Of a stretch of 64,000 nt of DNA, positions 2,066 to 25,798 are shown piece by piece; the stretch's first letter is position 1; the number at the start of each line of letters is the position of its first letter. The notes beneath the pieces were generated by a model, which was not told the origin of the DNA, ran no database searches, and saw nothing but the letters and a program-made list of their open reading frames with translations. Source of the DNA: Bacteroidia bacterium. GTDB taxonomy: Bacteria; Bacteroidota; Ignavibacteria; SZUA-365. Both the position numbers and the translations under genes were made by a program. Where the stretch lies: the NCBI GenBank assembly GCA_027493955.1, contig JAOSJT010000001.1, forward strand, positions 3,707,131 through 3,771,130. Reading direction: 5' to 3'.

Positions 2066-2152
2066 GGAGAGGTGCAGGAGTGGCTGAACTGGCACGCCTG
2101 GAAAGCGTGTGTACGTGAAAGCGTACCGTGGGTTCGAATCCCACCTTCTCCG
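2066..2152 (+). tRNA. tRNA-Ser(GGA)
   Basis: All arms fold: acceptor GGAGAGG with CTTCTCC (one G-U), D-arm CAG/CTG around GAGTGGCTGAA, anticodon stem CACGC/GCGTG with loop CTGGAAA (anticodon GGA), a long variable arm GTACG/CGTAC typical of serine tRNAs, and T-arm GTGGG TTCGAAT CCCAC. The discriminator base is G and CCA is not encoded. It is the only intact copy in the window. Four GIY-YIG-linked, degenerate copies lie at 2465-3433 and 14189-14686. Confidence 0.97.
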
Positions 2153-2159
2153 CGACACG

Positions 2160-2184
2160 AAAGACCCCGGATCCCGGGGTCTTT
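2160..2184 (+). terminator. Terminator hairpin after tRNA-Ser
   Basis: A perfect 11-bp stem, AAAGACCCCGG with CCGGGGTCTTT and loop ATC, begins 8 nt after the tRNA. The same hairpin recurs at 2587-2611 and 3014-3038 in the tandem units. A diverged but equally perfect version follows the second tRNA locus. Confidence 0.7.
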
Positions 2185-2215
2185 CATCTTCATTCATATC
2201 AGTTGGGAGCTGGTC

Positions 2216-2479
2216 ATGTTTTACACGTATGTGCTATGGAGCGCGGTTCTACGCAAGCGCTACATCGGATCGACGAGCGATTTATCTCGACGTCTTGAGC
2301 AACACAATACCGGGCTCAGTACCTTTACCAAACGTGGAATCCCGTGGAGTGTAATCTACTTCGAAGACTTTCCGACGCGTCGGGAAGCAGAGGTGAGGGA
2401 ACGGACGTTGAAGTCCGGACAGGGACGGGCCTGGCTTGACCAGACGTTTCCACAGTATCGTTCCGCAGGAAGTGGCTGA
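2216..2479 (+). CDS. GIY-YIG nuclease family protein, array copy 1
   Basis: This is an 87-residue single-domain GIY-YIG protein (UPF0213/YhbQ-like size). Visible motifs are YTYVL at 3-7 (GIY position), RYIGSTSDLSRRLEQH (YIG and the following catalytic Arg) and EAEVRERTLKSGQGRAWL, which holds the catalytic Glu and the usual C-terminal helix. GIY-YIG domains cut DNA with a divalent metal; the target of this one is unknown. The last five codons and stop lie in sequence copied from the tRNA-Ser D-arm (GGCTGA), so the ORF ends inside the degenerate tRNA. There is no obvious Shine-Dalgarno; the ATG is fixed by conservation with the copy at 14526. Confidence 0.88.
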   Translation: MFYTYVLWSAVLRKRYIGSTSDLSRRLEQHNTGLSTFTKRGIPWSVIYFEDFPTRREAEVRERTLKSGQGRAWLDQTFPQYRSAGSG

Positions 2480-2579
2480 ACTGTCAGCCGGAGGCTGACT
2501 GGAAAGCGTGTGTACGTGTCCGTCTGAGGCGGATGCAAAGCGTATCAGCCTGAGGCCGATTCGAATCCCACCTTCTCCG
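2465..2579 (+). pseudogene. Degenerate tRNA-Ser interrupted by palindromes, copy 1
   Basis: It aligns to tRNA-Ser(GGA) from the D-arm to the discriminator but lacks the acceptor 5' strand. GCACGC (5' strand of the anticodon stem) is replaced by TCAGCCGGAGGCTGA. An 18-nt insertion starting TCCGTCTGAGGCGGA sits in the variable-arm loop. CCGTGGG (5' strand of the T-stem) is replaced by TCAGCCTGAGGCCGA. The anticodon loop and the 3' end are intact. It cannot fold as a tRNA. Confidence 0.85.
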
Positions 2580-2642
2580 CGACACGAAAGACCCCGGATC
2601 CCGGGGTCTTTCATCTTCATTCATATCAGTTGGGAGCTGGTC

Positions 2643-2906
2643 ATGTTTTACACGTATGTGCTATGGAGCGCGGTTCTACGCAAGCGCTACATCGGATCGA
2701 CGAGCGATTTATCTCGACGTCTTGAGCAACACAATACCGGGCTCAGTACCTTTACCAAACGTGGAATCCCGTGGAGTGTAATCTACTTCGAAGACTTTCC
2801 GACGCGTCGGGAAGCAGAGGTGAGGGAACGGACGTTGAAGTCCGGACAGGGACGGGCCTGGCTTGACCAGACGTTTCCACAGTATCGTTCCGCAGGAAGT
2901 GGCTGA
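2643..2906 (+). CDS. GIY-YIG nuclease family protein, array copy 2
   Basis: This 87-residue protein is identical to the copy at 2216-2479, as is the flanking DNA. It is preceded by its own terminator hairpin (2587-2611) and has its stop codon in tRNA D-arm-like sequence. No separate promoter is evident. If expressed, it probably depends on read-through from the tRNA-Ser promoter or on a weak promoter in the 30 nt before the ATG. Confidence 0.87.
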   Translation: MFYTYVLWSAVLRKRYIGSTSDLSRRLEQHNTGLSTFTKRGIPWSVIYFEDFPTRREAEVRERTLKSGQGRAWLDQTFPQYRSAGSG

Positions 2907-3006
2907 ACTGTCAGCCGGAGGCTGACTGGAAAGCGTGTGTACGTGTCCGTCTGAGGCGGATGCAAAGCGTATCAGCCTGAGGCCGATTCGAATCCCACCT
3001 TCTCCG
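2892..3006 (+). pseudogene. Degenerate tRNA-Ser interrupted by palindromes, copy 2
   Basis: Identical to 2465-2579, with the same three palindromic interruptions at the same positions, so the interruptions predate the tandem duplication. Confidence 0.85.
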
Positions 3007-3069
3007 CGACACGAAAGACCCCGGATCCCGGGGTCTTTCATCTTCATTCATATCAGTTGGGAGCTGGTC

Positions 3070-3333
3070 ATGTTTTACACGTATGTGCTATGGAGCGCGG
3101 TTCTACGCAAGCGCTACATCGGATCGACGAGCGATTTATCTCGACGTCTTGAGCAACACAATACCGGGCTCAGTACCTTTACCAAACGTGGAATCCCGTG
3201 GAGTGTAATCTACTTCGAAGACTTTCCGACGCGTCGGGAAGCAGAGGTGAGGGAACGGACGTTGAAGTCCGGACAGGGACGGGCCTGGCTTGACCAGACG
3301 TTTCCACAGTATCGTTCCGCAGGAAGTGGCTGA
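3070..3333 (+). CDS. GIY-YIG nuclease family protein, array copy 3
   Basis: This is the third identical 87-residue GIY-YIG protein. It is the last unit of the array; after its degenerate tRNA the sequence changes to a different terminator (3438-3459), marking the right edge of the amplified segment. Compared with the GIY-YIG protein at 14263-14526 it is about 84% identical (roughly 14 differences in 87 residues, counted by eye). Confidence 0.87.
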   Translation: MFYTYVLWSAVLRKRYIGSTSDLSRRLEQHNTGLSTFTKRGIPWSVIYFEDFPTRREAEVRERTLKSGQGRAWLDQTFPQYRSAGSG

Positions 3334-3433
3334 ACTGTCAGCCGGAGGCTGACTGGAAAGCGTGTGTACGTGTCCGTCTGAGGCGGATGCAAAGCGTATC
3401 AGCCTGAGGCCGATTCGAATCCCACCTTCTCCG
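3319..3433 (+). pseudogene. Degenerate tRNA-Ser interrupted by palindromes, copy 3
   Basis: Identical to the two preceding degenerate copies up to the discriminator base; the sequence after CGCGACA then departs from the array. Its 3' end also forms the left end of the 143-bp dispersed repeat. Confidence 0.85.
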
Positions 3434-3561
3434 CGACATGCCCGGGTAATACCGGGCATTTTGTTTTTCCTTTATGACGGTGGCCGACGAATTACGGACC
3501 TTCGAAAGCGTACCGCGGGTTCTCCCGGAGGGATGCCTCCGGCAGAATCCCACCTTCTCCG
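3419..3561 (+). repeat. 143-bp tRNA-Ser-derived dispersed repeat, copy A
   Basis: It runs from a tRNA-Ser 3' end (AATCCCACCTTCTCC), through a terminator hairpin, to a second tRNA-Ser fragment from the variable arm to the discriminator (3504-3561). That fragment has TCCCGGAGGGA and TGCCTCCGGCA palindromes inserted in the T-loop. A copy of the same length lies at 10644-10786. Neither encodes a protein. Confidence 0.8.
3438..3459 (+). terminator. Terminator hairpin
   Basis: ATGCCCGG and CCGGGCAT form a perfect 8-bp stem around GTAATA, followed by TTTTGTTTTT. It lies directly after the third degenerate tRNA. The same hairpin occurs at 10665-10686 and 10789-10810, again after tRNA-Ser 3' fragments. 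Confidence 0.75.
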
Positions 3562-3702
3562 CGAAATTACGAGACAGCCCGGAATCATCGATTATGGGCT
3601 GTTTTAGTTAATGTTCATGCGCTGGAATCGACCGAATCCACTGGAATCCACTGCATGTTGGACGTTTTTTGTATGTTCTTTCCGTGCGGTAGAATAAGAA
3701 AA

Positions 3703-10505: not shown

Positions 10506-10997
10506 CGCACAAGCTCCAAATTGTATGCAACTATGCTACTCTTCGCGGTGACTGCTGGACAATCGTGGATGCTTATTGGATGTTCGTGTGTTCGAAATGT
10601 GCTGGAAGCCCTGTAAATAAAGAGGATCGCAGCTTTCAGCAGATAATCCCACCTTCTCCGCGACATGCCCGGGTAATACCGGGCATTTCCTTTTCCCGCA
10701 CAACACCAGCCGACGAGCCGCAGACCTTCGAAAGTGTACCGCGGGTTCTCCCGGAGGGACTCCGGCGGAATCTCACCTTCCCTTCGACATGCCCGGGTAA
10801 TACCGGGCATTTTGTTTATGGCAGCAGTTGAAAAATCAGCCGCCCCGGAAGGCGGGCGTTGACAGATCCGTCACTCCAGAACTTCGCCGCTCCGCTCCCT
10901 GTTTTGCGAAACCCATACCACCGTCATCGTTTGTTTTGCCCGATTTCCACGCTACTTTGCCTGCATATTTTCCTGACGAATCATAGCGGAGGTTCAG
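10506..10997. other. Intergenic, tRNA-Ser relics and terminator hairpins
   Basis: There is no coding gene. It contains the second copy of the 143-bp tRNA-Ser-derived repeat and two ATGCCCGG/CCGGGCAT terminator hairpins (10665-10686, 10789-10810). The last 20 nt contain a strong GGAGG for the following TTG-started gene. Confidence 0.6.
10644..10786 (+). repeat. 143-bp tRNA-Ser-derived dispersed repeat, copy B
   Basis: It has the same length and order as 3419-3561: tRNA-Ser 3' end, ATGCCCGG hairpin, then a second tRNA-Ser fragment (10730-10786) interrupted in the T-loop by TCCCGGAGGGA and a CTCCGGCGGA patch. The outer parts match best. The middle spacer is diverged, and the second fragment is more decayed than in copy A. 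Confidence 0.75.
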
Positions 10998-14180: not shown

Positions 14181-14188
14181 CAGTGTCG

Positions 14189-14270
14189 CGGAGAAGGTGG
14201 GATTCGAACCCACGGTACGCTTTCACGTACACACGCTTTCCAGTCAGCCTCTGGCTGACAGTTCAGCCAC
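14189..14270 (-). pseudogene. tRNA-Ser 3' copy downstream of GIY-YIG
   Basis: It is identical over 82 nt to the 3' part of the tRNA-like gene at 14591-14686, including the TCAGCCAGAGGCTGA palindrome. It lacks the acceptor 5' strand and part of the D-arm. The GIY-YIG stop codon (14265-14263) lies within its GGCTGA. Confidence 0.85.
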
Positions 14271-14526
14271 CACCTGCAGAACGATATTGTGGAAACGTCT
14301 GGTCAAGCCAGGCGCGTCCGTGTCCGGATTTCAATTGCCGCTCGCGTTGTTCTGCTTCCCGACGTGTAGGATACTGTTCTGAGAAAATCAGAATCCACGG
14401 AATACCGCGTTTGGTGAAGGTGCTGAACCCGTTATTGTGTTGCTCAAGCCGATGAAGAAGATCGCTCGTCGACCCGATGTAGCGCTTGCGTAGAACAGCG
14501 CTCCAAAGCACATATGTGTAGAACAT
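14263..14526 (-). CDS. GIY-YIG nuclease family protein (locus 2)
   Basis: It has 87 residues, the same length and ends as the array copies, and about 84% identity. The YTYVL, RYIGSTSDL and EAEQRERQLKSGHG motifs, including the catalytic Arg and Glu positions, are intact. The changes lie in the middle (PWILIFSEQYPT) and around LLHRLEQHN. Conservation of the frame with mostly conservative changes suggests selection on the protein, not a dead copy. As at locus 1, the C-terminal AGGG-stop is encoded by tRNA D-arm-like sequence. Confidence 0.87.
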   Translation of the reverse strand: MFYTYVLWSAVLRKRYIGSTSDLLHRLEQHNNGFSTFTKRGIPWILIFSEQYPTRREAEQRERQLKSGHGRAWLDQTFPQYRSAGGG

Positions 14527-14582: not shown

Positions 14583-14590
14583 CAGTGTCG

Positions 14591-14686
14591 CGGAGAAGGT
14601 GGGATTCGAACCCACGGTACGCTTTCACGTACACACGCTTTCCAGTCAGCCTCTGGCTGACAGTTCAGCCACTCCTGCACCTCTCC
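14591..14686 (-). pseudogene. tRNA-Ser(GGA)-like gene with palindrome in place of an anticodon-stem strand
   Basis: It matches the intact tRNA-Ser(GGA) base for base except that GCACGC (5' anticodon stem) is replaced by TCAGCCAGAGGCTGA. The acceptor, D-, variable and T-arms and the anticodon loop are unchanged, and the promoter is conserved. Without CACGC the anticodon stem cannot pair with GCGTG, and removing the insert would not restore it. I therefore call it a pseudogene, though tRNA finders may report it as a tRNA with an insertion. Confidence 0.8.
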
Positions 14687-25644: not shown

Positions 25645-25698
25645 CCAATACGATACGAAGCTGGAATCTGTCGTCGGTGGCTTCGGCTACGCTAAGCT

Positions 25699-25798
25699 AC
25701 CGCCGAAGGGACACTCAGCTACCGCCGAAGGGACACTCAGCCACCGCCGAAGGGACACTCAGACACCGCCGAAGGGAAGCTCAACTACCGTCGAGGGG
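25699..25798. repeat. 22-bp tandem repeat, five units
   Basis: Units beginning ACCGCCGAAGGG start at 25699, 25721, 25743, 25765 and (as ACCGTCGAGGGG) 25787. The unit is about ACCGCCGAAGGGACACTCAG plus CT or similar, with the last units drifting. It lies between the converging genes ending at 25644 and 26003; the rest of that gap is empty. Confidence 0.85.

What the first reader, a model, noticed from the sequence alone, without database searches (positions are those of the whole stretch)
2066..3433. tRNA-Ser gene followed by a perfect triple tandem of a GIY-YIG nuclease/tRNA-Ser module
Seen directly: an intact tRNA-Ser(GGA), then three identical 427-bp units, each consisting of a terminator hairpin, an 87-residue GIY-YIG gene and a tRNA-Ser copy lacking its 5' end. 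The same module recurs at 14.2-14.7 kb. Known: GIY-YIG domains include homing endonucleases, and tRNA genes are common integration sites. Inference: the nuclease cuts tRNA-Ser genes in the D-arm region, and the module spreads by repair or unequal exchange using the tRNA 3' end. I know of no described element with this structure.
Basis: partly seen in the sequence, partly recalled or inferred. Interest (0 to 1): 0.85.

Follow-up and report, generated by a model that had tools for sequence, protein, structure and literature searches.

The report
Tiny nuclease elements embedded in tRNA genes
A very small DNA-cutting-enzyme gene lies inside duplicated tRNA genes in many Bacteroidota-type bacteria, where each branch of the enzyme family sticks to one kind of tRNA, and it looks like a minimal selfish element that invades a tRNA gene while carrying a spare copy so that the cell keeps a working tRNA.

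Summary
An intact tRNA-Ser(GGA) (2066-2153) is followed by three identical 427-bp units. Each unit has a terminator, an 87-aa GIY-YIG gene and a tRNA-Ser copy lacking its 5' end. The copies are also broken by three short hairpins. The insertion really ends at 3562: a same-family genome has the orthologous empty site, with tRNA-Ser directly followed by the sequence that starts at window 3563.

The phenomenon is much larger than one locus. Of 216 relatives, 172 lie within 400 nt of an intact same-strand tRNA gene and most of the rest have tRNA fragments; a sister GIY-YIG family from the same genomes scores 0/30. At least 17 isotypes occur, not only Ser. The nuclease tree follows tRNA isotype better than host family. 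In 73% of testable loci the other side of the gene carries a degenerate copy of the same tRNA, eroded at the gene-proximal end and disarmed by hairpins, often by exact replacement of the anticodon arm. Empty and filled orthologous sites exist. The nuclease is under purifying selection.

Best explanation: a minimal homing-like element that inserts into tRNA genes and supplies a replacement tRNA body. Cleavage and movement are inferred. No published description was found; phage SegB is closest.

The parts
2066..2153 (+). intact tRNA-Ser(GGA), the functional copy
   Evidence: ARAGORN; Rfam 51.6 bits; 99% identical to the tRNA-Ser(GGA) of same-family genome G005
2160..2184 (+). terminator-like hairpin after the tRNA (repeated at +427 and +854)
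   Evidence: read directly
2216..2479 (+). GIY-YIG nuclease gene, copy 1 (87 aa); its last codons lie inside the next tRNA copy
2465..2580 (+). tRNA-Ser copy 1, positions about 9-88, lacking the 5' acceptor strand, with three palindromes (2484-2498, 2519-2533, 2545-2559)
2643..2906 (+). GIY-YIG gene, copy 2 (identical)
2892..3007 (+). tRNA-Ser copy 2 with the same three palindromes
3070..3333 (+). GIY-YIG gene, copy 3 (identical)
3319..3434 (+). tRNA-Ser copy 3 with the same three palindromes
3504..3562 (+). terminal tRNA-Ser 3' fragment (positions 52-88) with a hairpin insert in the T-loop; joins directly to the native flank
   Evidence: orthologous empty site in G005
3563..3670 (+). native downstream flank of the tRNA-Ser gene, directly adjacent to tRNA-Ser in the empty site of G005
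   Evidence: blastn 84% over 127 nt (window 3545-3670, tRNA 3' end included), E 5e-34
10645..10821 (+). remnant: two tRNA-Ser 3' fragments with terminators and a T-loop hairpin, no nuclease gene
14590..14686 (-). tRNA-Ser pseudogene with palindrome TCAGCCAGAGGCTGA replacing the 5' strand of the anticodon stem (ARAGORN's 'GCT' anticodon is an artefact)
   Evidence: Rfam 25.2 bits, below cut-off 29
14263..14526 (-). GIY-YIG gene of the inverted module, dN/dS 0.17 against copy 1
14188..14278 (-). downstream tRNA-Ser copy of the inverted module (positions 8-97)

Best explanation
It is a minimal homing-like mobile element whose only protein is a bare GIY-YIG nuclease domain and whose insertion site is a tRNA gene. 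The element consists of the nuclease gene plus a nearly complete copy of its target tRNA. After insertion the tRNA is rebuilt from one end of the host gene plus the element's copy, so the cell keeps a working tRNA. The body of the old host tRNA is left on the far side of the nuclease gene as a dead copy, which then decays from the gene-proximal end and is further broken by genome-resident palindromic hairpins. Proposed cycle: the nuclease breaks (or nicks) an unoccupied tRNA gene of its own isotype; recombination repair through the flanking tRNA homology copies the element in; unequal exchange between the tRNA direct repeats expands the module into tandem arrays or deletes it. Shown here: anatomy, tRNA specificity of nuclease clades, empty and filled orthologous sites, purifying selection, tandem arrays. 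Inferred: DNA cleavage, target choice and repair-driven copying.
For: tRNA linkage: 172 of 216 hits lie <400 nt from an intact same-strand tRNA gene and about 35 of the other 44 have tRNA fragments; a sister single-domain GIY-YIG family from the same 100-genome sample has 0/30. Degenerate copy of the same tRNA on the other side in 117/160 loci vs 1% in shuffles. Downstream copies keep acceptor-3' 0.89 and T-arm 0.83 but acceptor-5' 0.16; upstream copies keep acceptor-5' 0.91 and D-arm 0.90 but acceptor-3' 0.04. Isotype label: 43 changes on the protein tree vs 117 shuffled (0/200); host family 71 vs 114. Empty sites: window locus vs G005; tRNA-Gln upstream of prs in one genus, 4 filled and 3 empty. 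Purifying selection: dN/dS 0.17 between the two window genes, median 0.14 over 60 pairs; catalytic-type residues present in 201-205 of 206. Tandem nuclease copies in 39 of 189 loci, spacing mostly 300-450 bp. Fold: pLDDT 94, nearest SLX1, UPF0213, I-TevI. Precedent: phage SegB, a GIY-YIG homing endonuclease, cuts inside tRNA genes and its activity is required for tandem amplification of a tRNA-segB segment (PMC13096335).
Against: No cleavage or movement was observed. The 87-aa protein has no separate DNA-binding domain, unlike I-TevI-type homing endonucleases. In tRNA-Gln the intact tRNA of a filled site is identical to an empty-site tRNA (G021 vs G066), so there is no obvious sequence change protecting the functional copy. 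Isotype-specific clades could also arise by vertical inheritance at a few old loci. Empty/filled comparisons are between species, not strains. No homologue was found in phages or plasmids, so a transfer vehicle is unknown. About 9 of 216 hits show no convincing tRNA.
Confidence: 0.6

Rival explanations
1. A vertically inherited, domesticated tRNA-linked nuclease. The gene has sat next to particular tRNA genes since ancient times; arrays and remnants come from ordinary unequal recombination between tRNA repeats, with losses producing the empty sites. No homing.
For: Isotype clades are compatible with ancient fixed loci; the four g13 Gln elements form one clade; perfect identity of the three units is what recent unequal exchange gives; nuclease-less tandem units of tRNA-Met 3' half plus terminator exist in the same genome.
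Against: The Ser-type element of the window has no close relative among 11 same-family genomes, and the same-family tRNA-Ser genes that were fetched are empty, while its relatives are in other families. The consistent retention of the flank-side tRNA end and loss of the gene-side end is the signature of insertion into a tRNA.
Confidence: 0.22
2. An RNA-level toxin-antitoxin-like module: the GIY-YIG protein cleaves the tRNA itself and the hairpin-modified tRNA copies act as uncleavable decoys; the order tRNA, terminator, nuclease resembles type III systems.
For: Isotype matching, tandem copies, terminator between RNA and gene, exact replacement of the anticodon arm by hairpins in Gln, Pro, Val, Ala, Gly and Lys copies.
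Against: Dead copies cannot close the acceptor stem (mean 4.6 of 7 pairs vs 4.2 in mismatched controls and 6.8 in intact tRNAs); upstream-type copies keep only the 5' part; the disrupted arm differs between clades; characterised GIY-YIG enzymes act on DNA (general knowledge).
Confidence: 0.08
3. A satellite mobilised in trans by a tyrosine integrase that uses tRNA genes as attachment sites; the nuclease is a passenger.
For: tRNA genes are classic integrase sites and the tRNA end is regenerated (general knowledge).
Against: No integrase in the unit; most of the tRNA body, not just a short core at the 3' end, is duplicated; the mirrored arrangement also occurs (54 of 167 tree rows); the nuclease is under purifying selection and isotype-specific.
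Confidence: 0.07
4. Assembly or binning artefact.
For: Many relatives are metagenome bins and tandem repeats often sit at contig ends.
Against: The window is inside one complete 5.24-Mb contig; cultured isolates show the same structure (e.g. Gillisia limnaea, Draconibacterium sediminis, Psychroflexus curvus).
Confidence: 0.02

Closest known systems
Phage T4/T6 SegB and other Seg GIY-YIG free-standing homing endonucleases (PMC13096335)
   Same: GIY-YIG catalytic domain; genes beside tRNA genes of many isotypes; cuts inside tRNA genes; nuclease-dependent tandem amplification of a tRNA plus nuclease segment by homologous recombination
   Different: Phage-encoded; SegB association was reported not to favour particular isotypes, and no replacement tRNA body or hairpin-disarmed tRNA remnants were described in the sections read. 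Here the elements are chromosomal, 87 aa, and clades are isotype-specific
Mobile GIY-YIG ORFs of fungal mitochondria that carry a replacement 3' end of their target gene (Allomyces atp6 case; from memory, not checked here)
   Same: Nuclease ORF inserted next to a gene whose end it supplies, leaving the displaced original end downstream
   Different: Organellar, protein-coding target, single cases; here tRNA targets across a bacterial phylum
UPF0213 / single-domain GIY-YIG proteins (PDB 1ywl, 1zg2)
   Same: Closest solved sequences (E 4e-13); similar size
   Different: Deposited as hypothetical proteins; the sister single-domain family tested here is not tRNA-linked
SLX1 structure-specific endonuclease
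   Same: Closest fold in the PDB by Foldseek E-value
   Different: SLX1 works with SLX4 on branched DNA; no tRNA link
tRNA-integrating islands and phages (tyrosine integrase att sites)
   Same: Insertion in a tRNA gene with regeneration of the tRNA
   Different: No integrase, unit of only 300-450 bp, most of the tRNA body carried
REP palindromes with RAYT transposases (PMC3733652); mitochondrial repetitive hairpin elements (PMC2800124)
   Same: Short genome-wide palindromes; the window genome's only Y1 transposase lies beside two TCAGCC-TGA-GGCTGA copies
   Different: That a RAYT places hairpins in tRNA copies is not shown; insertion in tRNA loops and whole-arm replacement is an extra observation

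Membership tests
GIY-YIG nuclease superfamily (PF01541) | GIY-YIG fold and catalytic-type residues (Tyr, YIG, Arg, Glu) | tested here: met
   Pfam E 2e-14; Y5, Y16, G18, R26, H30, E62 in 201-205 of 206; model pLDDT 94
Homing endonuclease (I-TevI type) | separate DNA-binding region next to the catalytic domain | tested here: not met
   87 aa, Pfam domain covers residues 1-67 and the model ends one helix later
Homing endonuclease (any) | cleaves alleles lacking the gene and is copied into them | not testable with these tools
   empty and filled alleles exist; cleavage untested
SegB-like free-standing GIY-YIG endonuclease | tRNA-gene association | tested here: met
   172/216 plus fragments; control 0/30
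SegB-like free-standing GIY-YIG endonuclease | tandem amplification of nuclease plus tRNA | tested here: met
   39 of 189 loci, though the amplified tRNA copies are mostly dead
SegB-like free-standing GIY-YIG endonuclease | sequence relationship to phage SegB | not tested
   no phage match to the window protein at E 1e-5; SegB itself not aligned
tRNA-integrating island | integrase gene within the element | tested here: not met
   the 427-bp unit has only the GIY-YIG gene
Group I intron in tRNA | inserted inside a tRNA that is made functional by splicing | tested here: not met
   the functional tRNA is uninterrupted; no intron family in the Rfam scan
REP/RAYT (for the hairpins) | genome-wide palindromes associated with a Y1 transposase gene | tested here: met
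   67 palindromes vs 4 control; the only Y1_Tnp lies beside two of them
REP/RAYT (for the hairpins) | GTAG or CGTC tag at the palindrome foot | tested here: inconclusive
   CGTC precedes the palindrome next to the transposase; the tRNA-embedded copies mostly lack it
Type III toxin-antitoxin | RNA repeats that fold and bind the toxin | tested here: inconclusive
   acceptor stem not restored in dead copies; binding not testable

The most novel reading that the evidence does not exclude
A new class of chromosomal selfish element, as small as about 300 bp, in which a bare 80-90-aa GIY-YIG nuclease has diversified into many tRNA-isotype-specific lineages across Bacteroidota and neighbouring phyla. 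Each carries a replacement body of its own target tRNA, so that an essential gene is invaded without loss of function, and leaves behind tRNA remnants whose arms have been swapped for hairpins.
Probability: 0.5. Interest if true: 0.9.

Novelty: new variant of a known kind. Interest (0 to 1): 0.82.

Why it matters
If right, essential tRNA genes of a whole bacterial phylum are repeatedly invaded by one of the smallest mobile elements with its own protein, one that solves the problem of breaking an essential gene by bringing its own copy. It would give a natural series of short nucleases with different tRNA-gene targets, useful for asking how a bare GIY-YIG domain chooses its site, and it would explain many GIY-YIG genes and pseudo-tRNAs annotated beside tRNA genes in Bacteroidota. 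The exact swap of tRNA arms for hairpins is a striking DNA-repair or transposition footprint in its own right.

Tried and rejected
tRNA-Ser specificity: rejected, many isotypes. D-arm cutting: no support, clades differ in the disrupted arm. Protective change in the intact tRNA: the Gln copy of filled genome G021 is identical to that of empty genome G066. In Ser, the window tRNA differs from same-family tRNAs at one acceptor-stem base, but the terminal remnant carries the same base, so it is lineage-specific and not evidence that the copy is foreign. Functional tRNA-like decoy: acceptor stem not restored. Phage or plasmid carriage: no match. A second empty-site test at tRNA-Pro in genus g20 was unclear because the region appears inverted. 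A 12-sequence alignment was too diverse for the genome-contig scan, so a 5-sequence one was used, which biases the named set towards relatives of the Ser type. The loop preference of hairpin inserts is modest (58/72 at unpaired junctions, 59% expected) and depends on alignment; whole-arm replacements are more convincing. Literature searches found no description; the library lacks most subscription journals and preprints. The 2006 phylogenomic survey of GIY-YIG nucleases mentions tRNA only in passing.

Full report
OBSERVATION. The window holds an intact tRNA-Ser(GGA) at 2066-2153 followed by a tandem array of period 427, 3.1 copies, 100% identical. Each unit contains a terminator-like hairpin, an 87-aa GIY-YIG gene (PF01541, E 2.2e-14) and a tRNA-Ser copy starting near tRNA position 9. 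The last codons and the stop of the nuclease gene lie inside the tRNA copy (...GCAGGAAGTGGCTGA). The copies also carry three palindromes that destroy the 5' strand of the anticodon stem and interrupt the variable arm and T-stem. A 59-nt tRNA 3' fragment at 3504-3562 with a T-loop hairpin closes the array. An inverted, 84% identical module lies at 14.1-14.75 kb; its first tRNA is probably a pseudogene (Rfam 25.2 bits against a cut-off of 29). A nuclease-less remnant lies at 10645-10821.

EMPTY SITE OF THIS LOCUS. In same-family genome G005 the tRNA-Ser(GGA) is directly followed by a flank that aligns to window 3545-3670 (84%, E 5e-34), while the tRNA itself aligns to 2065-2153 (99%). So 2154-3562 is an insertion in, or immediately at, the tRNA gene, with the tRNA 3' end present on both sides. 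Nine of ten genomes searched with the tRNA-Ser region gave a match, eight of them other than the window's own, each with one tRNA-Ser(GGA). None of the 11 same-family genomes shows a Ser-type nuclease among the loci placed on the tree.

THE FAMILY. The protein has five matches in its own 5.24-Mb single-contig genome, the fifth being a TGA-broken copy beside tRNA-Asp. 62 of 100 relatives have matches. I fetched about 110 loci from these and 80 named loci from a scan of one genome per species: Ignavibacteria, Melioribacteraceae, Flavobacteriaceae, Prolixibacteraceae, Crocinitomicaceae, Chitinophagaceae, and single Patescibacteria, Neomarinimicrobiota and Lentisphaerales bins.

tRNA LINKAGE. Of 216 non-redundant hits, 172 have an intact tRNA on the same strand within 400 nt (116 upstream of the gene, 56 downstream), covering Ser, Arg, Val, Met, Pro, Asp, Phe, Ala, Gln, Leu, Asn, Cys, Gly, His, Trp, Lys and Glu. 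Of the 44 others, many are array members or lie at contig ends, and about 35 have tRNA fragments nearby (the same fragment test gives 3 of 30 in the control family). That control is a sister single-domain GIY-YIG family from the same 100-genome sample: 0 of 30 loci have a tRNA within 400 nt, or anywhere in the fetched stretches of about 3 kb.

ANATOMY OF THE DEAD COPY. In 117 of 160 loci with enough sequence, the far side of the nuclease gene carries a degenerate copy of the same tRNA (shuffled-tRNA control 1%). Retention is polar. Copies downstream of the gene keep acceptor-3' 0.89, T-arm 0.83, variable 0.72, anticodon arm 0.43, D-arm 0.47, acceptor-5' 0.16. Copies upstream keep acceptor-5' 0.91, D-arm 0.90, anticodon arm 0.44, variable 0.24, T-arm 0.14, acceptor-3' 0.04. 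The end that touches the chromosomal flank is kept and the end that touches the nuclease gene is lost, as expected if the gene plus a replacement tRNA body entered the tRNA gene. The nuclease-side acceptor strand is not compensated (4.6 of 7 pairs, mismatched controls 4.2, intact tRNAs 6.8), so these copies do not look like maintained tRNA-like RNAs.

HAIRPINS. Dead copies are interrupted by short palindromes: 72 pure insertions (mean folding energy -0.42 kcal/mol per nt, shuffled -0.21; 58 of 72 at unpaired junctions, 59% expected) and 89 replacements. In Gln, Pro(CGG), Val(TAC), Ala, Gly and Lys copies the whole anticodon arm is replaced exactly, or nearly so, by a hairpin (L014, L019, L021, L029, L034, L036, L047, L049, L064, L071, L107, L112 and others). 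The disrupted arm is clade-consistent (41 changes on the tree, shuffled mean 55, lowest 49 of 300). The palindromes belong to genome-wide families: 67 in the window genome vs 4 for the reversed pattern, and TCCCGA...TCGGGA palindromes in the genus with Gln elements and in two other genera. The window genome's single Y1 transposase (RAYT-like) lies beside two of them. A REP/RAYT origin is plausible; why they end up in loops and arms of dead tRNA copies is unexplained.

SPECIFICITY. On a tree of 206 proteins the isotype label needs 43 changes (shuffled mean 117, none of 200 as low); the host-family label needs 71 (shuffled 114). Many nodes are weak (73 columns), and vertical descent at old loci can contribute, but nuclease lineages clearly keep to one tRNA across host families.

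EMPTY AND FILLED SITES IN ONE GENUS. Upstream of prs (named here from its sequence), genomes G031, G066 and G084 have a plain tRNA-Gln(TTG); G021, G040 and G073 have tRNA-Gln, nuclease and dead tRNA-Gln, and G090 has the same with two nuclease units in tandem. The intact tRNA of filled G021 equals that of empty G066, so nothing in that tRNA sequence protects it; this is the main difficulty for simple sequence-specific homing. Possible ways out (inference): low expression, nicking, or recognition of a structure (nearest fold SLX1).

SELECTION AND DYNAMICS. dN/dS is 0.17 between the two window genes and has a median of 0.14 over 60 pairs. Catalytic-type residues are present in 201-205 of 206. 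39 of 189 loci have tandem nuclease copies, mostly 300-450 bp apart. The window genome also has a nuclease-less tandem array of tRNA-Met 3'-half plus terminator units with varying hairpins, split by a transposase-like insertion, so array growth does not need the gene in every unit.

MECHANISM. Best reading: a homing-like element that invades tRNA genes and restores them, followed by recombination between tRNA repeats. Steps shown: insertion relative to empty sites, an intact tRNA kept at the site, polarity of remnants, isotype tracking, selection on the nuclease, amplification. Steps inferred: cleavage, target choice, copying by repair, transfer between species. The nearest experimental precedent is phage SegB, which cuts within tRNA genes and whose catalytic activity is needed for tandem amplification of a tRNA-segB segment by homologous recombination (PMC13096335).

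LIMITS. Most relatives are metagenome bins; isolates (Gillisia limnaea, Draconibacterium sediminis, Psychroflexus curvus and others) show the same structure. No reads were available. The literature held is incomplete.

Noticed in passing
L225 1230-3930 (G000:C1:1534.2-1536.9 kb): tRNA-Met followed by about nine tandem 120-142-bp units of tRNA-Met 3' half plus terminator, without a GIY-YIG gene; units differ in their hairpins (one palindrome or two), and the array is split by a probable transposase gene.
   Followed up: partly
G000:C1:4215382-4215988 (L284): The genome's only Y1-family (RAYT-like) transposase lies beside two TCAGCCTGAGGCTGA palindromes, with CGTC at the foot on one strand; suggests the palindromes are REPs.
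   Followed up: partly
G000:C1:2016214-2016465 (L005): A fifth nuclease copy, with an in-frame TGA, beside tRNA-Asp(GTC) and a hairpin-split tRNA-Asp fragment.
   Followed up: no
Flavobacteriaceae loci L164-L178, L190, L205, L210, L220: A conserved sub-type with the nuclease domain ending 16 nt before an intact tRNA-Arg(ACG) or (TCG), often with a tRNA-Arg 5' fragment bearing CCCGCCCGA...TCGGGCGGG-type hairpins upstream.
   Followed up: no
L042 (G040:C33) 2299-2369 on the gene strand: ARAGORN calls a 'tRNA-Cys(ACA)' that is really a tRNA-Pro copy with its anticodon arm swapped; odd tRNAs annotated near GIY-YIG genes may often be such copies.
   Followed up: no
window 25695-25798: Tandem repeat of a 22-bp unit (AGCTACCGCCGAAGGGACACTC), 4.7 copies, 89% matches.
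   Followed up: no
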